Of a stretch of 32,927 bases of DNA, positions 3,618 to 32,654 are shown one piece after another. This DNA is from Candidatus Cloacimonadota bacterium (GTDB lineage Bacteria > Cloacimonadota > Cloacimonadia > Cloacimonadales > TCS61). The stretch lies in NCBI GenBank assembly GCA_021736135.1, contig JAIPGO010000044.1:1-32927 (forward strand), read 5' to 3'. The position numbers were made by a program, and so were the translations under genes. Each line of letters starts with the position of its first letter. Position 1 is the stretch's first letter. Under the pieces are notes generated by a model that had not been told where the DNA came from, ran no database searches, and saw nothing but the letters and a program-made list of their open reading frames with translations.

Positions 3618-3811
3618 ATTTTCAAACGAACCATATAAGTAAATTACTTGGTATAAGTAACCGGGGAATTAATAATTTAAGACAAAACATAAAGCAACTA
3701 TTTTATAAAATCTTAATTTTGTTATTATTTGTCAAGCCTGATTTCGGGACTGGTGTAGCCTTCACTATTCACTATACACTAATCCCCTATTTTATTGGCA
3801 TTTAGCAACTA

Positions 3812-3829
3812 TGTTAGTTTTGTCTAACA
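3812..3829 (+). promoter_or_regulatory. Candidate metal-regulator operator before feoAB
   Basis: TGTTAG-TTTTGT-CTAACA is a perfect 6-base-arm palindrome ending 6 bases before the predicted -35 box of feoA. The TTAG...CTAA arms resemble binding boxes of the DtxR/IdeR/MntR family, which respond to Fe(II) or Mn(II). The palindrome is seen directly; the regulator is an inference and no such gene lies in the window. Confidence 0.45.
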
Positions 3830-3835
3830 ATATTC

Positions 3836-3863
3836 TTGACATCTGGAGTAAGGTGATTATCTT
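3836..3863 (+). promoter_or_regulatory. Predicted promoter of feoAB
   Basis: TTGACA at 3836-3841 matches the sigma70 -35 consensus exactly. TATCTT at 3858-3863 is a fair -10 at 16-base spacing. The feoA start lies shortly downstream at 3887, giving a short leader. Confidence 0.45.
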
Positions 3864-3877
3864 TTGTTATGAAGTTC

Positions 3878-3882
3878 GGAGG
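3878..3882 (+). promoter_or_regulatory. Ribosome binding site that fixes the feoA start
   Basis: GGAGG lies 4 bases before the ATG at 3887. An in-frame ATG six codons earlier (3869) has no such site before it, so 3887 is the likely start. Confidence 0.75.
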
Positions 3883-3886
3883 TATA

Positions 3887-4177
3887 ATGAAATTTGGTGG
3901 CGGACATGGTAAAGGACGGCATTGCCGGAGATTGCTGAAAGAGCAGCGACATCTGCAGGATGGCAGTTCTTATAAGATTACGGGTTACCGGGGTGAAAAC
4001 TGTGAATTCCGGCGGAAACTGCTGAATCTGGGATTGTTTCGCGGAGAGGATTTTCGTGTTATGGGCAGAGCGCCTATGGGCGATCCCATAGAAATTAAGA
4101 TCAACGGATACCGGCTTTCTATCCGCGCCGCTGAAGCTGATGAACTTATTACCGAAAAAATAGAGAATGAAAAATAG
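3887..4177 (+). CDS. feoA: FeoA-type ferrous iron transport accessory protein
   Basis: FeoA is a small SH3-like cytoplasmic protein that works with the FeoB iron channel. The core motif is clear: LLNLGLFRGEDFRV, then the APMGDPIEIKINGYRLSIR block and the EA dipeptide that FeoA proteins share. At 96 residues it is longer than the usual 75-85 because of an N-terminal extension rich in Gly, His, Arg and Lys (MKFGGGHGKGRHCRR), which includes two His and one Cys that could contact metal or nucleic acid. The gene overlaps feoB by 11 bases, so the two are translated together. A palindromic operator-like site and promoter lie directly upstream. Confidence 0.9.
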   Translation: MKFGGGHGKGRHCRRLLKEQRHLQDGSSYKITGYRGENCEFRRKLLNLGLFRGEDFRVMGRAPMGDPIEIKINGYRLSIRAAEADELITEKIENEK

Positions 4178-6416
4178 TATAACCATTGCTTTGGCAGGAA
4201 ATCCCAATAGTGGCAAAACCACGGTATTTAATGTTTTAACCGGTTCAAGGCAGGTTGTGGGCAACTGGCCCGGCGTGACCGTGGAGCTGATGGAAGGTTA
4301 TTTTGAAACCGAAAACCTGCGGGTACGCGTGGTTGATCTGCCCGGGATATATTCTCTGGCAGCGAATTCCGAAGATGAAAAAGTAGCCCGGAATTTTATA
4401 CTTTCCGGCAAAGCAGACCTCGTTGTACAGATCATTGATGCTTCCAATCTGCAGCGCAATTTATATCTTACTACCCAGATCATGGAGCTGGAGGTTCCGC
4501 TGATCCTGGTGCTGAATATGATGGACCTGCTGGCTGCCGGTAAACTGGAACTGGAAATTGAGCATTTTGCCCGGCATTTAGACTGTCCCGTGCTGGAAAT
4601 GACTGCCAGCAAAAAGACCGGTGTCCCCCTGCTCAAGGAACAAATCGCAATATCGGCATTAGAAAAACATGTATCCCGCACCTGCATCAGTTATGACAGC
4701 GTTGTGGAAAGCGAAGTGCATAAACTGCAGCCTATGGTAAAACAGCATGCAGATGAGCAAAAGGTTTCTGTACGCTGGCTCACGCTGCGCCTGCTGGAAG
4801 ATGCCGAAGTCCGCACCCGGATTGATGATCAGGCATTAGTGCAGCATTTCGAAGATGCCATAAAGCGCATTGAACATCATACCGGTGACCCGATGGACGT
4901 GGTTATGGCAGACGGGCGGCATGGGTTCGTCAAGGGACTGGTGCGTGATACTTTGCGTCGGCATAAGACAGAACTGCGTGACCTGACGGATACCATAGAC
5001 AAGTTCGTGCTTAACCGCTATCTGGGGATACCGCTGTTTCTGCTGGTGATGATGGGTGTCTTCTATCTGACCATGAGCGTTGGTTCACCTTTCATTGATT
5101 TTTTTGACGGCTTGATGGGTACTATATTCGTGGATGGATTCCGGGTATTGCTGACATCACTTTCTCTGCCAGTCTGGCTGATCACGCTGCTGGCTGACGG
5201 GCTGGGCGGTGGCGTGCAAACCGTTTCCACTTTTATACCACCAATATTTTTTATCTTTCTGGCGCTGTCCGTTCTGGAAGATTCCGGTTATATGTCCCGC
5301 GCCGCCTTTGTAATGGACAGATTCATGCGCACTATCGGTTTACCCGGCAAAGCATTTATACCTATGCTCATCGGTTTCGGCTGCAATGTGCCGGCAATTA
5401 TGGCCACTCGCACCCTGGAAAATAACCGTGACCGCATCCTGACAATTATCATGAATCCCTTTATGTCCTGTGGGGCTCGTCTGCCGGTATATTCCATATT
5501 CGTCGCTGCGTTTTTCTCACAAAGAGCAGGCTTGACGCTGTTTTCTATCTATTTCACCGGAGTAGTGCTGGCGATTTTCTCCGGACTGTTATTCAAATCG
5601 ACTATTTTAAAAGGTGAAATTTCCACCTTCGTGATGGAACTACCGCCTTATCATATTCCCACGATCAACGGCATAATGCAGCATACCTGGCTACGCCTGA
5701 AGTCATTCATCCTCAGAGCCGGACAGGTGATCATTATCATTGTGCTCATTCTCAGTTTCCTTAATTCCATCGGCACCGACGGCAGTTTCGGCAACCAGCA
5801 TTCCGATAAATCTATTGTCTCCTGGATCGCCCAGCGGATTACTCCCGTTTTTCGCCCCATGGGTATTCAGAATGATAACTGGCCCGCCACAGTCGGCTTG
5901 ATCTCTGGAGTATTTGCCAAAGAAGCCGTGATCGGTTCCCTGGATGCTCTTTACAGTCATATTGATGCTGAAGTGCGTAATGAGTTATCGGAAGGTGGAG
6001 ATAAATTTCACTTCTGGCAAGGCATTGCCGCTGCTTTTATAGCAATACCACAAGGATTCGGGATAATATCCGCCAATGGTGAAAGTGACAAGGGCTATCT
6101 GACAGGACTGGTGCAGAAGGGCTTTAAAGGGGACCGCTATGCCGGCTTTGCCTTTATCCTTTTCGTACTCATATATGCCCCCTGCGTCGCCGTTATCGGT
6201 GCCATATACCGCGAAACCAGCCCCGGCTGGGCTGCCTTCGTGGTTGCCTACCTCACCTTCTTAGCCTGGATCGTGGCAACTTTATACTATCAGACTGCCA
6301 CTTTCCTGCTGCATCCTGCCTCTTCCATGATGTGGATTGTTATCTGCTTCGCTCTCTTCCTGCTTTTCTATATCATCCTGAAACTAAAGCCCTCAAAATT
6401 CCTGAAGAAAATTTAA
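4167..6416 (+). CDS. feoB: Ferrous iron transporter FeoB
   Basis: FeoB is the inner-membrane Fe(II) transporter with a cytosolic GTPase domain. The 749-residue protein has G1 GNPNSGKT (11-18), the GNWPGVTVE switch region, G3 DLPG (57-60) and G4 NMMD (117-120), then a helical GDI-like region to about 280. The membrane half contains the two Gate blocks, one being the conserved LIGFGCNVPAIMATRTLE and the NPFMSCGARLPVY segment with their conserved cysteines. The C-terminus is a hydrophobic helix ending in a Lys-rich tail. Length and order are normal for the family. No feoC-like gene follows; the next 366 bases are non-coding. Confidence 0.97.
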   Translation: MKNSITIALAGNPNSGKTTVFNVLTGSRQVVGNWPGVTVELMEGYFETENLRVRVVDLPGIYSLAANSEDEKVARNFILSGKADLVVQIIDASNLQRNLYLTTQIMELEVPLILVLNMMDLLAAGKLELEIEHFARHLDCPVLEMTASKKTGVPLLKEQIAISALEKHVSRTCISYDSVVESEVHKLQPMVKQHADEQKVSVRWLTLRLLEDAEVRTRIDDQALVQHFEDAIKRIEHHTGDPMDVVMADGRHGFVKGLVRDTLRRHKTELRDLTDTIDKFVLNRYLGIPLFLLVMMGVFYLTMSVGSPFIDFFDGLMGTIFVDGFRVLLTSLSLPVWLITLLADGLGGGVQTVSTFIPPIFFIFLALSVLEDSGYMSRAAFVMDRFMRTIGLPGKAFIPMLIGFGCNVPAIMATRTLENNRDRILTIIMNPFMSCGARLPVYSIFVAAFFSQRAGLTLFSIYFTGVVLAIFSGLLFKSTILKGEISTFVMELPPYHIPTINGIMQHTWLRLKSFILRAGQVIIIIVLILSFLNSIGTDGSFGNQHSDKSIVSWIAQRITPVFRPMGIQNDNWPATVGLISGVFAKEAVIGSLDALYSHIDAEVRNELSEGGDKFHFWQGIAAAFIAIPQGFGIISANGESDKGYLTGLVQKGFKGDRYAGFAFILFVLIYAPCVAVIGAIYRETSPGWAAFVVAYLTFLAWIVATLYYQTATFLLHPASSMMWIVICFALFLLFYIILKLKPSKFLKKI

Positions 6417-14819: not shown

Positions 14820-17165
14820 ATGGAAACTAACAATGCGCTAAACCTTAAGAACATTCTGCTTTGGCTGGTGCTTTTGATCATTGCCGTGCTGCTACTCGTC
14901 GCAGTAAGCAGCAATGCCGAACAGATGCTTTCCGACTACCGGATAATTTCTGAAAGCGGGATGAATTTATGGGATATACTCAGCCTGGATTTTCCTGATC
15001 TGCATAATCCTATTGGACCCTTTGGTGCTATCCTTGGTTACTGGCTGTCCTATCTTTTTGGTAAAATTCTATGCGTTTCACTGCTTATCGGCCTGGCGCT
15101 GCTTTCCTTCTTTAATATTTTCACTATTTATCGGGAAAATGTGGTTTTAAAGCTCATCAGTTTTGTGATCATGGCATTTTTCATAAACATAATAGTTCTC
15201 ACGATGCGTAACAGTAAACCACTTTTGACCGGTATAATCACTAATTTTGTCCTGACTCTGCTAAATAGACTTTTTGATGTGGCGGGTACGATCATTATAT
15301 CGAGTGTTATCATAATCGTGATGACCATAATTATCTTTGAACTGGGTCCTTTGTGGCGGGCAATGGTCTGGTTGCTGGACACATTAAAAAGCTTCTTCCA
15401 CTGGATTTTTAAGAAAAAAGAAAAAGCAGTCAAAGAGAAAAAACTGGATAAAATCATTAAAATACCCAAAGCACCGCACTTGAAAGTACATAATGATCCG
15501 GAACCGGCATTGGATTATGAAGATGAGCCTGTGATTCCCACCGTAACTGACGAGCCGGAAGAAAATCAGAGATTTAAGCCGGTTGTAAAAAAAAAAATAC
15601 CAATCAATAACAGTGAACCTGTAGTACCTTTCCCGGAAGAGAAAGACGAAACGGCAGCTAAATCGAAAATTAGGGCTGAAAATAAATATTCTCCCCCGCA
15701 GGACGGTAATTACACCGTACCGAATATTGAGGACTTTCTAAAACCACATACTTCACAGCAGTCAAACAGGGAAGAACTGAAAGAAAACATTGCCCGGACC
15801 AGTGAAGTCCTGATGAATAAGCTGGCGGAATTTCAGGTGGAAGCAACGGTAAAGAATGTAAATATCGGTCCCATCGTAACTCAATATGAACTGGAACCCG
15901 CCCCGGGCGTTAAAGTTAATACCTTTAATAATCTATCCAAAGACCTGGCGCTGGCCCTGAAAGCAAACAGCCTTAGAGTGGAAGCACCGATCCCGGGACG
16001 TGGACTGATAGGCATTGAACTCCCAAATGAGCAGCGGGATATAATTTATCTGCGTGATATTATGCTTTCTAAAAGCATGAGAAATATGGAAAGTATCCTG
16101 GCTTTCGGCCTGGGAAAAGATATCTCCGGCAATCCGGTAGTGGCGGATCTGGCAAAAATGCCGCATCTTCTCGTGGCAGGTGCCACCGGCTCCGGTAAAA
16201 GCGTTTGTGTTAATTCCATTATCGTAAGCCTGCTGCTGCGTGCCAAACCTTCGGAATTACGCCTGATACTTATTGACCCTAAAAGAATTGAATTAGCCGG
16301 TTATGAGGGAATTCCCCATCTTATTCAGAATGTTGTCACCGAGCCCGAACACGTGATGATCACCTTGAACTGGGCCGTCTCTGAAATGGACAGACGCTAT
16401 AAGCTGCTCCAGATCTATGGCGTGAGAAACCTGCAGGATTACAATATAAAGATCAAGGAAATGCGAAAAGCTGACCCGGAACTGGAAGAAAAGGAATTAC
16501 CCTATATCGTGGTAATTATTGATGAGTTCTCCGACCTGATCATGACTGCAACCAAGGAAATAGAGCGGCCTGTTACCCGGCTGGCGCAGATGGCGCGTGC
16601 CATAGGTATTCACCTGATCCTGGCCACGCAACGCCCTTCCACCAAAGTTATCACGGGATTGATCAAGGCCAATTTCCCTTCCCGTATCGCGTTTAAGGTT
16701 ACCCAGAAAATAAACTCCCGCGTTATTCTCGACGTTAATGGCGCAGAACAGCTTCTCGGTAAAGGTGATTCTCTTTTTCATGGTCCCGGTCAGCCGGCAC
16801 CGGTGCGCATCCACGGCGCTTTCGTTTCTGACATTGAGATCAATAATCTGGTGGATTATCTGCGGGTGCAGCCGCGACCTGATGATGATATTACTATAAT
16901 CAGTGATACTCAGGAAAACCTGGCAGAATTCGATTATGATGACGACCTTTTCCCGGAAGCTGCTTTTATTATTGTTAATGCCGGTTCGGCTTCCGTTTCC
17001 ATGCTGCAGCGGCATTTCAAGATCGGATATGCCAGAGCCGGAAGATTGATTGATCTGCTGGAACAGGCAAGAATAGTGGGACCGCACCTGGGCAGCAAAT
17101 CCCGCGAAGTGCTGGCTTCGGAACAGGACTTGAGAGATAACGGACTGTGGTTAATTGATAATTGA
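14820..17165 (+). CDS. ftsK: DNA translocase FtsK/SpoIIIE
   Basis: FtsK pumps DNA at the division septum during chromosome segregation. The 781-residue protein has about four membrane helices (near 12-30, 67-97, 109-127, 152-175), then a charged linker of modest length (about 200-300). The motor domain has Walker A GATGSGKS (454-461) and Walker B VVIIDEFSDL (Asp568-Glu569). A C-terminal winged-helix gamma domain (about 708-770, SVSMLQRHFKIGYARAGRLI) reads orienting DNA sites in known members. The last residues and the stop are encoded by a short intergenic-type repeat. lolA follows after 14 bases, an order also known from Proteobacteria. Confidence 0.96.
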   Translation: METNNALNLKNILLWLVLLIIAVLLLVAVSSNAEQMLSDYRIISESGMNLWDILSLDFPDLHNPIGPFGAILGYWLSYLFGKILCVSLLIGLALLSFFNIFTIYRENVVLKLISFVIMAFFINIIVLTMRNSKPLLTGIITNFVLTLLNRLFDVAGTIIISSVIIIVMTIIIFELGPLWRAMVWLLDTLKSFFHWIFKKKEKAVKEKKLDKIIKIPKAPHLKVHNDPEPALDYEDEPVIPTVTDEPEENQRFKPVVKKKIPINNSEPVVPFPEEKDETAAKSKIRAENKYSPPQDGNYTVPNIEDFLKPHTSQQSNREELKENIARTSEVLMNKLAEFQVEATVKNVNIGPIVTQYELEPAPGVKVNTFNNLSKDLALALKANSLRVEAPIPGRGLIGIELPNEQRDIIYLRDIMLSKSMRNMESILAFGLGKDISGNPVVADLAKMPHLLVAGATGSGKSVCVNSIIVSLLLRAKPSELRLILIDPKRIELAGYEGIPHLIQNVVTEPEHVMITLNWAVSEMDRRYKLLQIYGVRNLQDYNIKIKEMRKADPELEEKELPYIVVIIDEFSDLIMTATKEIERPVTRLAQMARAIGIHLILATQRPSTKVITGLIKANFPSRIAFKVTQKINSRVILDVNGAEQLLGKGDSLFHGPGQPAPVRIHGAFVSDIEINNLVDYLRVQPRPDDDITIISDTQENLAEFDYDDDLFPEAAFIIVNAGSASVSMLQRHFKIGYARAGRLIDLLEQARIVGPHLGSKSREVLASEQDLRDNGLWLIDN

Positions 17166-17179
17166 TAATGGATAATTAA
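17151..17179 (+). repeat. TGATAAT-type short tandem repeat at the ftsK stop
   Basis: The segment reads as TTAATTGATAATTGATAATG plus GATAATTAA, a degenerate tandem of about 7-8 bases. It supplies the last codons and the TGA of ftsK and fills the spacer before lolA. Similar units occur in other gaps of the window. Confidence 0.6.
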
Positions 17180-17785
17180 ATGAAAAAAATATTATTTGCT
17201 TTTGTAATTCTCTTAGGCTCCTGCGCTGCTTTTGCGGACATGGAGCAACTTTATGAAGATATCATGGCATATTACCAGGGGATCACAACTTTTCAGGCTG
17301 AATTGTTACAGGAAAATTACTGGCAGGAAATTAATATCAGCAAAACCTCACGCGGTATGATCTATTATAACCGCGACTCACTCCATATTGCTTACTTAAA
17401 ACCTGATGAACAGCAGCTTTTCGTGCTGCAAAACGATATCCTGATCTACGAACCCGCTACCGCTCAGGCAATCTGGATGGATAAGGGAGATTTTAAGATC
17501 AAACCAGAGGAAATATTGTCCTTTTACTGGGAAAGCAGTGAGATTGAAATAATCTCTCAATCCGGTAATGAGACTATTCTGCTTCTTACTAATCCTGCCG
17601 AATCCATTGAAATCGTACTGGATAAACTGTTTATCCGGTCAGTTCAGATCACTGATGGTGAAGGAAATATAGTCAAATACTCCTTTCAGGCGGAACACAT
17701 AAATCTGCAATTACCCTCTGGTATATTTACTCTGCAGCTGCCGCCTAAAACGAATGTTATTGATAACCGCAACGGAGGAAATTAA
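17180..17785 (+). CDS. lolA: LolA-like periplasmic lipoprotein carrier
   Basis: LolA ferries lipoproteins from the inner-membrane Lol permease to the outer membrane. The 201-residue protein starts with a signal peptide (MKKILFAFVILLGSCAAFA). The mature part has the LolA pattern: an amphipathic start, YYQGITTFQAELLQ, then a beta-rich barrel with GMIYYNRDSLHIAY and IWMDKGDFKIKPEEI. LGSC at 12-15 could be read as a poor lipobox; cleavage after AAFA looks more natural. Identity is weak at residue level but supported by the position after ftsK and by the LolC/E-type permease at 25121. manC starts directly after the stop. Confidence 0.8.
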   Translation: MKKILFAFVILLGSCAAFADMEQLYEDIMAYYQGITTFQAELLQENYWQEINISKTSRGMIYYNRDSLHIAYLKPDEQQLFVLQNDILIYEPATAQAIWMDKGDFKIKPEEILSFYWESSEIEIISQSGNETILLLTNPAESIEIVLDKLFIRSVQITDGEGNIVKYSFQAEHINLQLPSGIFTLQLPPKTNVIDNRNGGN

Positions 17786-18844
17786 TTGATAGCTCTCATT
17801 ATGGCCGGGGGGATCGGCTCACGCTTCTGGCCCCTGAGTCGCAAAAAAAATCCTAAACAATTCCTGCCGATTGTCAGTAAAGAATCTATGATCCGGCTTA
17901 CGGTTGACCGACTGCTCCCAAAAATCAATGTTGCTGATATTTACGTGGTTACAGCACTCGAACAGGCAGAACTTGTGCGAAAACACCTGCCGGAACTTCC
18001 AACGGAAAACATCATCTGCGAGCCTTTCGGAATGAATACTGCTCCCTGTATTGGACTGAGCCTGGCCTGGCTGGAAGGTAAATATCCTGCTGACGAAACT
18101 ATGCTTGTGGCAGCAGCAGACCACCAGATTACCAATACTTCCGCTTTTTATGAATGCCTGCAAACAGCTGCAAATGCCGCTCAAAAAGGCTACCTGGTCA
18201 CTTTTGGCGTTTTGCCTGACTACCCTGCCACCTGTTATGGTTACATAGAATGCGGCAGAGAAATAATGGAAAATACTATACAGGTATTGCGCTTTAAAGA
18301 GAAACCCAAACTGGCAAAAGCCAGGCAGTATCTGCAAACCGGTAATTTTCTCTGGAACAGCGGTATGTTCTTATGGCAGTTGCAAACTATTCGCCGGGCT
18401 TATGAGGAGTTACAACCTGAAATCTGGAATTTAATGGGTCAAATCCGTCAATCCCTGGACGATAACCTGCCAGAACAGGCCATTGCTGCTCTTTATGCTC
18501 AAATGCCTAAAATACCCGTGGATGTTGGTATTATGGAAAAATCCACCAATATTGCCGTGGTTCCTGCTGGCATCGGCTGGAGCGACGTCGGCGGCTGGAA
18601 GGCGCTGGCTGAATTATCACCCGCTGATGCAGAGGGTAACTTCTGCCAAAATCCATTGTCCCAAATAATTGATTCCCGGAATAATTATGTTTTTTCTGAT
18701 AAGATGGTCAGTCTTATTGGCGTAAAAAACCTGATCGTGGTCGATACCGGTGACGTACTGTTAATCATGAACAAAAAACGCTCAGAAGATGTGAAAATCA
18801 TTGTTAACCGGCTCAATGAAGCAGGAAAAGAAGAGCTTCTCTAA
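17786..18844 (+). CDS. manC: Mannose-1-phosphate guanylyltransferase
   Basis: The enzyme makes GDP-mannose from mannose-1-phosphate and GTP, feeding O-antigen, capsule or exopolysaccharide synthesis. The 352 residues begin with the nucleotidyltransferase signature GGIGSRFWPLSRKKNPKQFL (8-27). NTAPCIGLS, FKEKP, WNSGMFLW, VDVGIMEKS and WSDVGGWKAL follow, all typical of the ManC catalytic domain. It lacks the C-terminal phosphomannose isomerase cupin of bifunctional forms. The start is TTG, supported by GGAGG seven bases upstream and by immediate adjacency to the lolA stop. The glycosyltransferase and epimerase at 28502-30777 could be downstream users. Confidence 0.93.
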   Translation: MIALIMAGGIGSRFWPLSRKKNPKQFLPIVSKESMIRLTVDRLLPKINVADIYVVTALEQAELVRKHLPELPTENIICEPFGMNTAPCIGLSLAWLEGKYPADETMLVAAADHQITNTSAFYECLQTAANAAQKGYLVTFGVLPDYPATCYGYIECGREIMENTIQVLRFKEKPKLAKARQYLQTGNFLWNSGMFLWQLQTIRRAYEELQPEIWNLMGQIRQSLDDNLPEQAIAALYAQMPKIPVDVGIMEKSTNIAVVPAGIGWSDVGGWKALAELSPADAEGNFCQNPLSQIIDSRNNYVFSDKMVSLIGVKNLIVVDTGDVLLIMNKKRSEDVKIIVNRLNEAGKEELL

Positions 18845-27127: not shown

Positions 27128-27958
27128 ATGGCGAAAATAGATTTGCATATTCATTCGAATTTTTCCGACGGTGTTTTTTCACCTCGGGAACTGCTTGAGC
27201 TGCTGCAGCAATACGAATACGATCTGGTTTCCATTACTGATCATGATACTATTGATGGTTGTCTGGAAGGAATGAAACTGGCACCTCATTACGATATCAG
27301 AATGCTTTCAGGAGTGGAGATCAGCTCGGATGTCAACGGACGCGACGTGCATATTCTCGCCTACGGATTTGATATTCAGAATAAACCCTTCCGCCGTTTT
27401 CTACTGGAAATTGAAAAAGGAAGAACCATCAGAGCACGCAAGATTGTGAAGCTGCTTGATAAACAGGGTATGCGGCTTGATTTTAAAGACGTGATAAATC
27501 TCACCGGTAAATTCAACCTGGTGGGAAGACCTCATATTGCCCGGGCTTTAATTGATGCCGGGCACTGCCGCGACATCAAAGATGCTTTTGATAATTACAT
27601 CGGAGAAGGGCAATCATGTTATATTCCCAAACCGGCACCCTCTGCTCCTCAGGTTCTGGAAGCTATCCGAAAGGCCGGGGGAGTTTCTGTTCTGGCTCAT
27701 CCTTACATCTATCGTGATGACGATATGATCGAAACTCTGATTTCCCAGGGACTGGAAGGACTGGAAGTATTTTACAGCCGTCACACTCCCGAAGAAACAA
27801 GACGCTATGAAGAAATGGCAGATAATAATGGTTTGATCAAAACTGGCGGCAGCGATTTTCACGGGCACGGTTCCGACTTGAATTTCTTCGGATTCTTCAG
27901 CGCACCTCCCGTAGTCGCCTCATACCTGAAACATCTGGTCAAGGAGCCTCCGATATGA
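27128..27958 (+). CDS. PHP-domain phosphoesterase (TrpH/YciV-like)
   Basis: PHP proteins of this type hydrolyse 3',5'-nucleotide bisphosphates or trim RNA ends. The 276 residues have all the metal-site motifs: HIHSNFSDG (His7, His9, Asp14), ITDHDT (38-40), GVEISS (Glu64), HILAYG (His75), RPHIARAL, VLAHPY, and GGSDFHG near the C-terminus. The length and order match the stand-alone TrpH/YciV family rather than the DNA polymerase PHP domain. The stop overlaps the next start as ATGA. The upstream GGGGT is distant from the ATG, so translation initiation may be weak. Confidence 0.92.
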   Translation: MAKIDLHIHSNFSDGVFSPRELLELLQQYEYDLVSITDHDTIDGCLEGMKLAPHYDIRMLSGVEISSDVNGRDVHILAYGFDIQNKPFRRFLLEIEKGRTIRARKIVKLLDKQGMRLDFKDVINLTGKFNLVGRPHIARALIDAGHCRDIKDAFDNYIGEGQSCYIPKPAPSAPQVLEAIRKAGGVSVLAHPYIYRDDDMIETLISQGLEGLEVFYSRHTPEETRRYEEMADNNGLIKTGGSDFHGHGSDLNFFGFFSAPPVVASYLKHLVKEPPI

Positions 27959-28485
27959 AACATTATGAAGAATATCAAAACATTAATCAGCGCAAAGGAC
28001 TGCCTCGCTCCTACTGGTTTAACCAGTTCATCCGCTGGTTTACGATTCTTTTTGCCTCCTTTGCCATAGCCTATGCGTTCTGGCTCATTTTTAAACGGAT
28101 TGATGCCGATTCCAGTACATTTAATAAAGTCGTACCTTTTCTGATCATCTTTTTTGCCATTAATTCTCTCCTGCGAAACCTCTTTTCTCTGAACAGATTA
28201 TTGTTTACGGAGCAATCTCTTACACTTACATACCTGCTCAGAAAGAATGTGAATATACCCTGGCTGAAAATCAGCTCAATTAAAATGACCCCAGCTAGGC
28301 AAAAACTCCTGAAGATTACCTGGCTTGATGATGAAAACAGGGAAATGAATCATGAAATGACTCTCGCCTTTCCCAGAATGCTGGAAATAATAAATGCTAT
28401 AGTGGAAATGTGCCCACAGGTAGAACTTGATGAATTTCTGGATAGCGTGGTCATCAGCGACAGAGAAAAAACCGATCTATCCTGA
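27955..28485 (+). CDS. Two-helix membrane protein with PH-like domain, unknown function
   Basis: The 176-residue protein has two hydrophobic helices (about 26-45 and 58-77). A small beta-rich segment follows (LLFTEQSLTLTYLLRKNVNI, then WLKISSIKM) resembling bacterial PH (YdbS/YdbT-like) domains, and then a helix. The identity is weak. It is translationally coupled to the PHP gene by an ATGA overlap and followed after 16 bases by the glycosyltransferase gene, so it is probably in the same transcript. Confidence 0.6.
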   Translation: MKHYEEYQNINQRKGLPRSYWFNQFIRWFTILFASFAIAYAFWLIFKRIDADSSTFNKVVPFLIIFFAINSLLRNLFSLNRLLFTEQSLTLTYLLRKNVNIPWLKISSIKMTPARQKLLKITWLDDENREMNHEMTLAFPRMLEIINAIVEMCPQVELDEFLDSVVISDREKTDLS

Positions 28486-28501: not shown

Positions 28502-29785
28502 ATGCGGAAAGTACTGATAATTACCTATTACTGGCCACCCGCCGGCGGACCGGGCGTTCAGCGCATACTTAAATTCGTGAAATACCTTCCCCAACTCGGT
28601 TGGCAGCCTGTCGTGTTAACGGTCAAAAACGGGAATTATCCGGCTCTCGACGAAATCCTGACAGCAGAAATACCCAGGGAAGCTGAAGTTTTTAAAACTT
28701 TCAGTCTTGAACCATTTGCTCTTTATAATCTCATTAAAGGTAAAAAACCTGATAGCAATATTCCCACTCACATTTTGAGCAGTAGTGAAAAAGATACTCT
28801 GATTCAGAAACTGTTTAAATGGATAAGGGTAAACCTGTTTCTCCCTGATGCCAGAATCGGGTGGATACCTTTTATGATCAAAAAAGGCAAACAGTTAATA
28901 AGAGAATATCAGCCGGATGTGATTTTCAGTTGTTCACCTCCCCATTCATTACAATTAGGCGCAGCGGAACTAAGCAGGTGCAGCGGAATACCTTTCGTTT
29001 GTGATTTGCGGGATCCCTGGACAGAAGCTTTCTGGCTTAAAAGTTTAAACCGTAATCCACTGAGCTGGGTTATTGACCGAAGATGGGAAAGAAACACACT
29101 GAAGCAGACAAATTATATTACTACGGTAAGTAATGGATTTAAGGAAATTTACTCTAAGATTACAACTTCTCCTATTCTTGTTATTCCAAATGGTTTTGAT
29201 GATATTGACTTTAAAAACGTTATAAAATCCAGAAACTCTAAATTTACGATCTGCCATACGGGAAATATAAGAACCGTTCAATTTGCTCAAGAATTTTTCG
29301 ATTCGATAGATGCTTTACCGAAAGAAATTCTGGATAATCTGGAAGTGAATCTTTTCGGAAATGTCCACTTTCAAATAAAAGAATATATTGAAAGCAGTAA
29401 AGCTCATGATTGTTATCATTTCCATGGTTATGTTTCCCATGAAAGAGTTATACAGGAGATTGTTAATGCCGATATGCTGGTTGTTTTTTCAACAAATACG
29501 CCCAATAGTGCCGGTATCCAAACAGCAAAACTTTTTGAATATTTAATAACAGGAAATTTCATAATCGCCTATGGAACCGAAGGTAATGAGATGAAAGATA
29601 CCCTGGATGAAACAGAGTGCGGAGCTTTTTATATTTTCGGTGAATCATGTGAAAAAGATATCTTGAAACTTTACGCGCTTTGGCTTAATGATGCATTACC
29701 TCATTACGGCAATGACCTGGTCTCGAAATATTCACGTAAGAACCAGACTAAAGAATTAGTAACCCTTTTTGAGAAGTTATTATGA
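28502..29785 (+). CDS. GT-B glycosyltransferase (GT4-like)
   Basis: The 427-residue protein starts with VLIITYYWPPAGGPGVQRIL, the N-terminal Gly-rich strand-loop of GT4-type sugar transferases. Later elements are FSCSPPHSLQLGAAELSR, TVSNGFKEIY, IPNGFDDIDF and a C-terminal Rossmann part with HFHGYVSHE and AKLFEYLITGNFIIAYG, where a Glu binds the nucleotide sugar in the family. It would act on a lipid-linked or growing glycan at the inner membrane. The stop overlaps the epimerase-like gene (ATGA), so the two proteins probably act on the same polymer. Codon use looks more AT-rich than in the housekeeping run, by eye. Confidence 0.88.
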   Translation: MRKVLIITYYWPPAGGPGVQRILKFVKYLPQLGWQPVVLTVKNGNYPALDEILTAEIPREAEVFKTFSLEPFALYNLIKGKKPDSNIPTHILSSSEKDTLIQKLFKWIRVNLFLPDARIGWIPFMIKKGKQLIREYQPDVIFSCSPPHSLQLGAAELSRCSGIPFVCDLRDPWTEAFWLKSLNRNPLSWVIDRRWERNTLKQTNYITTVSNGFKEIYSKITTSPILVIPNGFDDIDFKNVIKSRNSKFTICHTGNIRTVQFAQEFFDSIDALPKEILDNLEVNLFGNVHFQIKEYIESSKAHDCYHFHGYVSHERVIQEIVNADMLVVFSTNTPNSAGIQTAKLFEYLITGNFIIAYGTEGNEMKDTLDETECGAFYIFGESCEKDILKLYALWLNDALPHYGNDLVSKYSRKNQTKELVTLFEKLL

Positions 29786-30777
29786 ACCTGAAAAAATCTG
29801 TTTTCATGATTAATAAATTGATTACTGACCTGGGTACTTCCCGCTCTCATTATAATATTGCTGACGATTTGACTAGCCATAAATTAAGCTTCTATTATTT
29901 CTTATTTGATGAAAATAGAGTGGCTGCAGGTAAAGATCAAAAATTAATCCGGCAATTTGATGAAAACGGTATCCCTATGAATAGTACGTATATTGACGTT
30001 ACTGACCAAAAGCTGCTCTACTATCCAATATCAATTGGTCAGATGGGTTTAGCAGTATTTCACACCTGGCTTAATTCTAAGAAAGATGATGATAAAAACA
30101 GGTTTCTGAAATTTGCTGAATGGTTTGCCGCTAATGCAGAAATAACTGAAAACCTGGGTGCACGCTGGCTGACTGACGTTTCATTACCCCAATACCATAA
30201 TCCCGGACCCTGGCAATCTGCATTTTCTCAGGCAAGAGCCATTAATATTCTGCTGCGGGGCTATCAGTTAACCGGCAATAAAGATTGGGCAAATCTCGCC
30301 GAAAAAGCTCTCATATCCTTTACTAAACCTGTCGCGGAAGGGGGCGTAACCAGTTTCACGGAATGGGGTCCATTCTATGAAGAATATACCGCTTCTATAC
30401 CTACACTTGTTCTTAACGGTATGATCTTTGCTCTTTTCGGAATTTATGACTACGTCCGTGTTTTCCCGAAAAATGAACTCGCTGCCAGACTCTTTTCGGA
30501 AGGAATAGCAACCTTAAAAAATATCCTGCCGCAATTTAACCTGGGATACTGGAGCCGCTATAATCTTTGCAGTGCCGAATGGTATCCTGATATTGACCCA
30601 GCAACCATCAACTACCAGAGATTGCATATTGTCCAACTGGAATGCCTGCACCGAATTACTGGGGAAAAAGTAATTAAGGACTATAATTATATCTACAAAA
30701 AGCAGGATAAATTCATCAATGCTCTGAGAATGTATCATCAAAAAATTCAATCTCTGAGAAAGATAGGAAGACTTTGA
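29782..30777 (+). CDS. D-glucuronyl C5-epimerase-like protein
   Basis: The 331 residues match the C-terminal alpha/alpha-barrel domain of heparan/heparosan glucuronyl C5-epimerases. Supporting motifs are YYPISIGQMGLAVFHTWL, QYHNPGPWQSAFSQARAI, WGPFYEEYTAS, LVLNGMIFALFGIYDY and INYQRLHIVQLECL. Tyr residues in EEYT and INYQ fall where the epimerase active-site Tyr are expected. The N-terminal beta domain of animal enzymes is absent, as in known short bacterial relatives. No signal peptide is visible, so it may act on a cytoplasmic or lipid-linked polymer. The gene is coupled to the glycosyltransferase by an ATGA overlap. Confidence 0.82.
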   Translation: MNLKKSVFMINKLITDLGTSRSHYNIADDLTSHKLSFYYFLFDENRVAAGKDQKLIRQFDENGIPMNSTYIDVTDQKLLYYPISIGQMGLAVFHTWLNSKKDDDKNRFLKFAEWFAANAEITENLGARWLTDVSLPQYHNPGPWQSAFSQARAINILLRGYQLTGNKDWANLAEKALISFTKPVAEGGVTSFTEWGPFYEEYTASIPTLVLNGMIFALFGIYDYVRVFPKNELAARLFSEGIATLKNILPQFNLGYWSRYNLCSAEWYPDIDPATINYQRLHIVQLECLHRITGEKVIKDYNYIYKKQDKFINALRMYHQKIQSLRKIGRL

Positions 30778-30972: not shown

Positions 30973-32178
30973 TTACCTTATAACTGTTTGACAAACCCGG
31001 AATCCCCTATTCTCATTTCCGGAAAAAGGAGTAACGCTTCCACGAAACGCTAACCTGCAAAACGAATCATCATTGGAAAAACTGGCTCCCCGAACTACTT
31101 TGCCTGTTCCGATTTCTGGTCCGGTTGGATTATCCGCAGGGGAAATGTTATAATAGGTCGCGGAATACCAATCACAACACCACTCCCAAACGTTACCACT
31201 CATATCGTATATGCCCGATCCGTTAGCCTGTTTTAAACCAGATATATGGGTATTAGGAGTTGAATTACCTGAAAACCAGGCAACTTCATAACAATTGTCA
31301 CTTCCTGGGTAAATATAATCCGGATCATCAGTTCCACCTCTTGCGGCATACTCCCATTCTGCTTCTGTAGGTAATCTGTATCCATTTGCCCCAAAATCAC
31401 AGCTCCAATCGACAAAATCATAACACGGTTCGAAATTCTGTATTAAACTTAAAAAATTACAAAAGGCAGCAGCACCATACCAGGTTATTTCAATACAGGG
31501 ACACTCGGGTGAAGCAGCGTATCCATTCCCAAAAAATATCAGTTCGTTATCCCAGATTCCAATTGCACAATCGACATCATTTAAATCTATCAACTCTTTC
31601 ATATCACCATAAGCATTAAATAATTCCATACCATTATAATATAGATGGTTATTATGCATTGCCCAGTTGAATACATCCAGAATTTCATGATGTGTTATCT
31701 CGTAAGTCCCAACATAATAATCACTCAGATTAACTGTATGAACAGGCAGCTCATCGTCCTGCCCTAATCCATGGGTATCACCCATTTGAAAACTGCCTGC
31801 TTGAATTAAGGTCATTGCGGGAAAACTTAAATTCCTGTCATCTGCTGTTATTTTTATCATTGCGGGTATATTTAAGGATTCCGGATGATCTCCAGCAAAA
31901 TCCCATACTATATGTTTATTGTTTCCGGATGCTATATCAAGCCCAAAATCTCCGGTGAGAGAATTGATCTGATAAACCCAGGTTGCTCCTTCGTCCATAG
32001 ACGCTCTTAATTCCACATACATTAAATCACTATCTGCGTCTTCAACATCGTAATAGATGTCCACCAGATATGTCCCGTCATCTCTCTGCTCAACACTGAA
32101 ATTACTCACTTCCGGTGGCTCATTACTGAACAAAAAAACACCGGATACAACTAGAACTATAATTAATATATATTTCAT
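30973..32178 (-). CDS. Secreted FGE-sulfatase (SUMF1) fold protein
   Basis: The 401-residue protein has a signal peptide (MKYILIIVLVVSGVFLFS). A beta-sandwich-like region follows (about 20-125, containing DVEDADSDLMYVEL and WDFAGDHPESL), then an FGE-sulfatase domain (about 128-400) with GSFQMGD, YEITHHEILDV, GYRLPTEAEWEYAARGG, GIYDMSGNVWEWCCDW and NRGFRV. In human FGE two active-site Cys (336, 341) bind copper. By eye alignment the first is Asn369 here and the second Cys374, so canonical formylglycine-generating activity is doubtful. The start overlaps the dockerin-gene stop by one base (TAATG), with GGAG upstream, giving coupled translation. Confidence 0.88.
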   Translation of the reverse strand: MKYILIIVLVVSGVFLFSNEPPEVSNFSVEQRDDGTYLVDIYYDVEDADSDLMYVELRASMDEGATWVYQINSLTGDFGLDIASGNNKHIVWDFAGDHPESLNIPAMIKITADDRNLSFPAMTLIQAGSFQMGDTHGLGQDDELPVHTVNLSDYYVGTYEITHHEILDVFNWAMHNNHLYYNGMELFNAYGDMKELIDLNDVDCAIGIWDNELIFFGNGYAASPECPCIEITWYGAAAFCNFLSLIQNFEPCYDFVDWSCDFGANGYRLPTEAEWEYAARGGTDDPDYIYPGSDNCYEVAWFSGNSTPNTHISGLKQANGSGIYDMSGNVWEWCCDWYSATYYNISPADNPTGPEIGTGKVVRGASFSNDDSFCRLAFRGSVTPFSGNENRGFRVCQTVIR

Positions 32179-32654
32179 TATTTATCTCCTTCTGCTGGTT
32201 TTCTTATGCGTAACTGCGCTCTCATATTTGTTGGAATATCCTTTTGGAGTCGTAATAGCACCGGTTCTTCCTCCACAGGGAAAATATTAATCATCCCTAT
32301 TGCATACTGCAAGATCAAGCCTGCATCATAAGCACCGATGAACTCGTCCCCGCTCACATCTGCTATTATCAGCCGCCAGTTTTCCCAGGGAAGTGGTGCC
32401 ACGGGGCCCGGATCTATATTCACTATGTATTGCAAAACCAGAGCCCCATCATAACTCTCAACCTGCGTATTGTTATCAATATCACCATAACGAAGCGTAC
32501 TTAAAAAAATTAACCCTGACGTTGCTTCCCCAATATGATTGCCTTCTTCCATCGAGGAGAGGTAAACAATTTCAGAAGTATCCCAGCCAACAGCGGCCAT
32601 TACAGGTAAGATAAATACTAGCAAAATCAACAAAATAATAAATCGTTTCAACAT
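32178..32654 (-). CDS. Secreted protein with two dockerin-type calcium-binding repeats
   Basis: The 158-residue protein has a signal peptide (MLKRFIILLILLVFILPVMA), about 35 intervening residues and then two F-hand repeats typical of type I dockerins. The first is DIDNNTQVESYDGALVLQY (Asp58 to Asp69) and the second DVSGDEFIGAYDAGLILQY (Asp99 to Asp110), each with Asp at positions 1, 12 and Asp/Asn at 3 or 5. The linker between them is longer than in clostridial dockerins. There is no catalytic domain, and no cohesin is in the window. It leads the coupled pair with the FGE-fold gene. AGGAGG (32662-32667) precedes the ATG. Confidence 0.85.
   Translation of the reverse strand: MLKRFIILLILLVFILPVMAAVGWDTSEIVYLSSMEEGNHIGEATSGLIFLSTLRYGDIDNNTQVESYDGALVLQYIVNIDPGPVAPLPWENWRLIIADVSGDEFIGAYDAGLILQYAIGMINIFPVEEEPVLLRLQKDIPTNMRAQLRIRKPAEGDK

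What the first reader, a model, noticed from the sequence alone, without database searches (positions are those of the whole stretch)
28502..30777. Glycosyltransferase coupled to a glucuronyl C5-epimerase-like protein
An ATGA overlap ties a GT-B transferase to a protein with the heparosan-epimerase barrel. This suggests that the bacterium makes a uronic-acid glycan with epimerised residues, rarely documented outside animals and a few bacteria. The region looks more AT-rich than its neighbours, hinting at transfer.
Basis: partly seen in the sequence, partly recalled or inferred. Interest (0 to 1): 0.55.

Follow-up and report, generated by a model that had tools for sequence, protein, structure and literature searches.

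The report
Bacterial uronic-acid epimerase paired with glycosyltransferase
Two overlapping bacterial genes encode a sugar-adding enzyme and a small relative of the animal enzyme that turns glucuronic into iduronic acid in heparin; the pair recurs in several bacterial phyla and probably builds an inverted acidic sugar into a cell-surface glycan, although no activity or substrate has been shown.

Summary
ORF 28502-29785 is a GT4-family glycosyltransferase, overlapping by ATGA the ORF 29782-30777, a 331-aa C5-epim_C (PF06662) protein (E 1.5e-41). Its model (pLDDT 93) matches human and zebrafish D-glucuronyl C5-epimerase (GLCE) at Z 33.5-34.1 over 295-299 residues, against 15.4 for the next family. 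All five published GLCE catalytic residues are present (E201, Y202, N212, Y260, Y278). It lacks about 170 residues of GLCE and any terminal membrane span, so it is probably cytosolic. The pairing is conserved across several phyla: the transferase lies directly upstream in 16 of 22 testable loci, with a 4-bp overlap in 12 of those 16. An asparagine-synthase-type gene adjoins the epimerase in 11 of 25 loci, but the divergent type was not found in this genome. Recent transfer is not supported for the epimerase, though its transferase partner has been exchanged. PF06662 is not rare: 40 of 103 phylum genomes. Best reading: a cytosolic uronyl C5-epimerase acting on a nascent surface glycan; substrate untested, heparosan unlikely. 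New member of a known kind.

The parts
28502..29785 (+). GT4-type glycosyltransferase, 427 aa
   Evidence: PF13439 and PF13579 over cut-off; no hydrophobic span found
29782..30777 (+). C5-epim_C (PF06662) uronyl C5-epimerase-like protein, 331 aa; predicted catalytic residues E201, Y202, N212, Y260, Y278
   Evidence: Pfam; PDB sequences; model and fold; residues
29782..29785 (+). ATGA overlap of the stop of the transferase and the start of the epimerase
   Evidence: a 4-bp overlap in 12 of 16 loci with the transferase directly upstream, window included
27955..28485 (+). small predicted membrane protein, 176 aa, directly upstream of the transferase; homologs sit upstream of the transferase in Cloacimonadota relatives
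   Evidence: no Pfam match up to E 0.1
27128..27958 (+). PHP-domain phosphoesterase, 276 aa; same-strand neighbour, overlaps the membrane protein by 4 bp; probably co-transcribed, role in the pathway doubtful
   Evidence: PF02811; same order in all 5 family genomes that have the ortholog

Best explanation
The pair is a glycan-building module. The GT4 enzyme adds a sugar to a growing, probably lipid-linked, oligosaccharide on the cytosolic face of the inner membrane. The epimerase, a minimal GLCE-type helical domain without GLCE's extra ~170 residues and without export signals, then inverts C5 of a uronic acid residue already in the chain, by Tyr/Glu-assisted removal and re-addition of the C5 proton, before export to the cell surface. 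The likeliest reaction is D-glucuronate to L-iduronate, because the active site is that of GLCE and the genome carries a UDP-glucose-6-dehydrogenase-type protein. Shown here (in silico): fold, catalytic residues, conserved gene coupling, lack of terminal membrane spans. Inferred: activity, acceptor, lipid-linked stage, identity of the uronic acid.
For: PF06662 E 1.5e-41; PDB phmmer finds GLCE (E 2.7e-14); model pLDDT 93.2 with GLCE as best fold, Z about 34 against 15.4 for the next family; five catalytic residues kept in 20 of 23 relatives (residues named in PMC13308652); GT4 directly upstream in 16 of 22 testable loci, 4-bp overlap in 12 of 16; no terminal hydrophobic span in the window protein, unlike the genome's second copy; UDP-glucose-6-dehydrogenase-type protein in the genome.
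Against: No activity data. The GT partner has been exchanged within the family while the epimerase stayed, so the coupling is not to one fixed transferase. L042 and L043 have an epimerase with no GT4 homolog in view. No polysaccharide cluster (polymerase, flippase, dehydrogenase) was recognised in the window. The TuaD-model score of the dehydrogenase is below that model's cut-off (568 against 700). A second sugar dehydrogenase resembling UDP-ManNAc dehydrogenases leaves other uronates open.
Confidence: 0.6

Rival explanations
1. Same enzyme type, but the substrate is another uronic acid (mannuronate to guluronate, galacturonate to altruronate, or an acetamido-uronate), in some carriers amidated afterwards by the asparagine-synthase-type neighbour.
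For: The genome has a second nucleotide-sugar dehydrogenase closest to UDP-ManNAc dehydrogenase models (C10) and an NDP-sugar epimerase beside the first dehydrogenase. Asparagine-synthase-type genes adjoin the epimerase in 11 of 25 loci. An amidated C5-inverted amino-uronate exists in Vibrio polysaccharide (PMC4432689 passages).
Against: All five catalytic residues are those of a glucuronate-specific enzyme. The divergent asparagine-synthase-type protein was not found in this genome.
Confidence: 0.25
2. The bacterium makes a heparosan-like glycosaminoglycan and this is a heparosan epimerase in the strict sense, as the finding hints.
For: Closest solved relatives are the heparan sulfate epimerases; the one characterised bacterial relative acts on desulfated heparin/heparan sulfate in vitro (PMC13308652 section 3; PMC4432689 section 10).
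Against: GLCE is reported to need N-sulfated glucosamine next to the target and I saw no sulfotransferase in the window; the partner is a GT4 enzyme; about 170 residues of GLCE are missing. I did not search the genome for a heparosan synthase.
Confidence: 0.08
3. The protein keeps the GLCE fold but does something else (lyase, hydrolase or binding role) or is inactive.
For: The barrel fold is shared with 2-epimerases and glycoside hydrolases at Z 13-15. L051, L052 and L053 lack one or two of the five residues.
Against: All five residues are kept in the window protein and in 20 of 23 relatives; the gap in Z between GLCE and all other folds is about 19 units.
Confidence: 0.1
4. The two genes were recently acquired as a unit from another phylum.
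For: GC z -2.2 and -1.6 in the window; orthologs of 59-68% identity in other phyla, as close as those of its own family; patchy presence (close ortholog in 5 of 40 family genomes).
Against: The epimerase groups with three family relatives at 96/87; the order PHP, membrane protein, GT, epimerase is kept in all 5 family genomes that have the ortholog; orthologs there are not AT-rich for their loci. Older transfer between phyla stays possible; the deep tree is unresolved.
Confidence: 0.07

Closest known systems
Animal D-glucuronyl C5-epimerase, GLCE (PDB 6HZZ, 6I01, 6I02, 4PW2, 4PXQ)
   Same: Fold (Z 33.5-34.1 over 295-299 residues), all five catalytic residues, PF06662 domain.
   Different: About 22-23% identity; about 170 residues of GLCE between query 97 and 141 are missing, where GLCE has its beta-sandwich domain (domain order from PMC13308652); no terminal membrane span; no known sulfated substrate.
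[quoted passage not shown] described in PMC13308652 and PMC4432689)
   Same: Bacterial member with a GLCE-like mechanism according to PMC13308652 section 6.
   Different: Sequence not at hand, so not compared.
Agl32 of Halobacterium salinarum (PMC13308652)
   Same: Single helical domain; acts on a lipid-linked oligosaccharide before export, which is the stage inferred here.
   Different: The paper reports that none of the GLCE catalytic residues are at corresponding positions in Agl32, whereas all five are present here.
Alginate C5-epimerases AlgG and AlgE
   Same: C5 inversion of a uronic acid within a bacterial polysaccharide (PMC4432689 passages).
   Different: AlgG is periplasmic and AlgE extracellular; their beta-helix fold is recalled, whereas this model is a helical barrel.

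Membership tests
C5-epim_C family (PF06662) | Domain score over the curated cut-off | tested here: met
   142.4 bits against 23.3
C5-epim_C family (PF06662) | GLCE-type helical barrel fold | tested here: met
   Z 33.5-34.1 with GLCE structures, next family 15.4
C5-epim_C family (PF06662) | Catalytic Glu, Asn and three Tyr of GLCE | tested here: met
   E201, Y202, N212, Y260, Y278
C5-epim_C family (PF06662) | Uronyl C5-epimerase activity | not testable with these tools
   needs an assay
Animal GLCE (heparosan epimerase proper) | Central beta-sandwich domain in addition to the helical domain | tested here: not met
   About 170 residues absent between query 97 and 141; the model is essentially all helical
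Animal GLCE (heparosan epimerase proper) | N-terminal beta-hairpin that makes the dimer | tested here: inconclusive
   Model residues 1-6 onward align to human 126-130 onward; no dimer was modelled
Animal GLCE (heparosan epimerase proper) | Acts on N-sulfated heparosan | not testable with these tools
   needs an assay
GT4 glycosyltransferase | N-terminal GT4 domain over the cut-off | tested here: met
   PF13439 51.7 bits against 28.5; PF13579 31.0 against 29.7
GT4 glycosyltransferase | C-terminal donor-binding domain PF00534 over the cut-off | tested here: inconclusive
   21.9 bits against 26.4, E 1.4e-4, in the expected place
GT4 glycosyltransferase | GT-B fold | not tested
   no model was made; no solved relative by sequence
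Agl32 archaeal epimerase | Sequence relationship to Agl32 | not tested
   Agl32 sequence not at hand; only the paper was read in part

The most novel reading that the evidence does not exclude
A cross-phylum glycan cassette (GT4, cytosolic GLCE-type epimerase, often an asparagine-synthase-type enzyme) that builds a C5-inverted and, in many carriers, carboxyl-amidated uronic acid on a lipid-linked precursor: a bacterial route to iduronic- or iduronamide-type residues in a cell-surface glycan shared by several little-cultured phyla.
Probability: 0.25. Interest if true: 0.6.

Novelty: new member of a known kind. Interest (0 to 1): 0.38.

Why it matters
According to a 2026 paper, only one bacterial enzyme has been identified that makes iduronic acid (PMC13308652 section 3). 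A well-conserved, soluble, minimal GLCE-type protein tied to one glycosyltransferase type across several phyla gives a defined set of candidates for testing where bacterial iduronic acid comes from; small epimerases are also of practical interest for making heparin-like polymers.

Tried and rejected
Recent transfer inferred from AT content: rejected for the epimerase. Asparagine-synthase-type gene of the divergent kind as part of this genome's pathway: not found, while the same query rings in G012, G101, G104 and G107. My first guess that the ~620-aa neighbours were ordinary AsnB was wrong for the 'MAG...' type: no Pfam match in the three scanned (L050, L054, L042), only remote matches to asparagine-synthase-type models. 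YfhO-type membrane proteins near the epimerase in 6 loci (L035, L038, L041, L045, L047, and L022/L049; in L035 and L038 below Pfam's cut-off) have no counterpart found in this genome (the control search rings in 3 of 14). The structure model of the asparagine-synthase-type protein was too poor to use (pLDDT 53). No solved relative of the GT by sequence. Alginate epimerases are not listed in the VIA second look, which shows nothing by itself. Literature: the searches listed nothing that I recognised, from titles and abstract starts, as describing this cassette; the library lacks most subscription papers, including the two Raedts papers. One of these (title seen in a reference list) surveys putative prokaryotic epimerases, so earlier description of the family's spread is likely.

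Full report
WHAT IS THERE. The window is contig C36 of a 4.14-Mb draft genome. Its family includes a genome (G026) whose contig C253 is 5522 bases long, the same length as the contig of Candidatus Stygibacter frigidus in L037, so the organism is most likely a member of Cloacimonadota (inference). Two + strand ORFs match the finding: 28502-29785 (427 aa) and 29782-30777 (331 aa), sharing ATGA at 29782-29785. The first carries GT4-type domains, the second a C5-epim_C domain. Upstream on the same strand lie a small membrane protein (27955-28485) and a PHP phosphoesterase (27128-27958), which also overlap by 4 bp. The gene downstream (30973-32178) is on the other strand.

THE EPIMERASE. By sequence the only strong solved relatives are zebrafish and human D-glucuronyl C5-epimerase, GLCE (E 2.7e-14 to 8.6e-14). 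The AlphaFold model (23 sequences, pLDDT 93.2, pTM 0.92) matches GLCE structures first in Foldseek (rows 1-8, E 3.1e-11 to 1.9e-10; the next row, a cellobiose 2-epimerase, is 3.1e-4) and in VIA-align (Z 33.5-34.1, 295-299 residues, rmsd 3.4-4.5; next 15.4). The GLCE catalytic residues given in PMC13308652 (abstract and sections 3, 6, 7 read) map to E201, Y202, N212, Y260 and Y278. The alignment shows identity to human GLCE at all five, and the sequence shared by 6i01 and 6i02 has Phe at the position aligned to Y278. All five are kept in 20 of 23 aligned proteins, the window included; L051 and L052 have N212D and Y260F, L053 has Y202I. The human numbering is chain index plus 90, my inference, supported by the fit of all five residues.

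WHAT IT LACKS. Query residues 97 to 141 correspond to about 213 residues in human GLCE, so about 170 residues are missing, where GLCE has its beta-sandwich domain (domain order from PMC13308652). There is no terminal hydrophobic span; the only stretch over the threshold, at 203-222, lies inside the folded barrel. The genome's second PF06662 protein (C52, 345 aa) has hydrophobic spans near both ends and, read by eye from its sequence, the same five residues. So the window copy is probably cytosolic and the other membrane-anchored.

THE COUPLING. 22 relatives were found in named genomes, 20 of them at 44-68% identity, in Cloacimonadota, Fidelibacterota, Calditrichota, Ignavibacteriota, Bacteroidota (Saprospiraceae) and KSB1. 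The neighbourhood count used 25 loci over 40% identity: the window, G004 (L019), these 20 named loci, G106 (L070) and two of G107 (L071, L074). In 3 of 25 the upstream side is cut off (L048, L052, L074). In 16 of the other 22 a GT4 homolog is directly upstream on the same strand, and in 12 of these 16 the overlap is 4 bp. In L036, L046 and L070 a GT4 homolog lies further upstream, in L045 it is on the other strand, and in L042 and L043 none is in view. Near copies are included (L042/L043; L038/L041 with the same arrangement), so these are not independent events. The spread over phyla nevertheless makes chance adjacency implausible.

A CASSETTE IN RELATIVES. In 11 of 25 loci an asparagine-synthase-type gene adjoins the epimerase: 8 of a divergent type (L034, L036, L040, L042, L048, L050, L054, L071) and 3 of ordinary type (L046, L051, L052). 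The divergent type has no Pfam match in the three scanned, remote matches to XrtA-system amidotransferase and asparagine synthase models (TIGR03108 E 2.3e-11, TIGR01536 E 2e-10) and to solved relatives (7ylz E 4.5e-6). Five of the six aligned proteins start Met-Ala and the sixth Met-Met-Ala, where the ordinary ones start Met-Cys (the Cys as glutaminase nucleophile is recalled). By search the divergent type is absent from this genome and from 5 of the 9 relatives tested with it. An amidated or otherwise carboxyl-modified uronic acid is a possible product in its carriers. An amidated, C5-inverted amino-uronate of unresolved biosynthesis exists in Vibrio polysaccharide (passages of PMC4432689).

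HISTORY. In the epimerase tree the window protein groups with three relatives of its own family (96/87), inside which L037 and G004 pair at 99/95. In the GT tree the window GT pairs with L037 (100/100), while the GTs of G004 and L039 pair with each other (100/100) in another part of the tree. GT identity to the window is 64% for L037 but 34% for L039, although their PHP, membrane and epimerase genes are about equally similar to the window's. The GT gene has therefore most likely been exchanged in place while the epimerase stayed. Deep relations between phyla are unresolved (12 of 21 inner branches open). Older transfer between phyla is likely from the identities but not proved. The AT-richness is mild and not seen in the family's other loci.

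HOW COMMON. PF06662 is over its cut-off in 40 of 103 genomes of the phylum (80% completeness or more asked for; of 14 control genomes 2 ring, 1 over the cut-off). The close ortholog is in 9 of 101 genomes at E under 1e-60 and in 5 of 40 family genomes at E under 1e-190. So the family is common in genomes while its activity is little documented: one bacterial enzyme is named as characterised (PMC13308652 section 3; PMC4432689 section 10). Passages of PMC7725333 add that iduronic acid was left out of its survey of sugar pathways.

PRECURSORS. The genome has a UDP-glucose-6-dehydrogenase-type protein (C90; TIGR03026 461 bits over its cut-off of 189.8; TuaD model 568 bits, below its cut-off of 700) beside a nucleotide-sugar epimerase, and a second dehydrogenase resembling UDP-ManNAc dehydrogenases (C10). 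Glucuronate is thus available in principle; other uronates are not excluded.

VERDICT. My estimates: uronyl C5-epimerase activity near 0.8, glucuronate as the residue near 0.5, action before export near 0.6, heparosan as the polymer under 0.1. The protein is a new member of a known kind. Its conserved partnership with a GT4 enzyme across phyla, and the divergent asparagine-synthase-type neighbour in relatives, are the parts that deserve follow-up.

Noticed in passing
L050:5996-7867, L054:5995-7860, L042:5882-7750, L036:5990-7849, L040:5990-7843, L048:846-2729: A ~620-aa divergent asparagine-synthase-type family, starting Met-Ala (one Met-Met-Ala) and with TxGQDSR in place of the usual SGGxDS motif (recalled), encoded directly after the epimerase; no Pfam match in the three scanned.
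   Followed up: partly
L018:3081-4118 (G000 contig C52): Second C5-epim_C protein of the same genome, with hydrophobic spans near both ends, between an adenylate-kinase-like gene and secA rather than in a glycan cluster.
   Followed up: partly
L049:1702-2697 and 3632-4774: Two different C5-epim_C proteins, one soluble-type and one with an N-terminal hydrophobic stretch, in the same cluster of a Cloacimonadota genome, with a short glycosyltransferase-like ORF between them.
   Followed up: no
window 28502-29785 against L019:3165-4445 and L039:3670-5004: The glycosyltransferase gene appears to have been swapped for a distant relative at an otherwise conserved four-gene locus.
   Followed up: partly
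L051:5001-6005 and L052:154-1161: A side branch of the epimerase (44-45% identity) with N212D and Y260F at the catalytic positions, next to an ordinary asparagine synthase; perhaps another specificity.
   Followed up: no
window 30973-32178 and 32178-32654: A formylglycine-enzyme-like (PF03781) protein and a small dockerin-like protein on the minus strand directly downstream.
   Followed up: no
window 14820-18844 against L034:3-3214 and L054:3-3226: In L034 and L054 homologs of the window's 14820-18844 genes (FtsK, a ~200-aa protein, a nucleotidyltransferase-like protein) stand directly before the membrane protein, GT4, epimerase and asparagine-synthase-type genes; in the window the two blocks are about 9 kb apart.
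   Followed up: no
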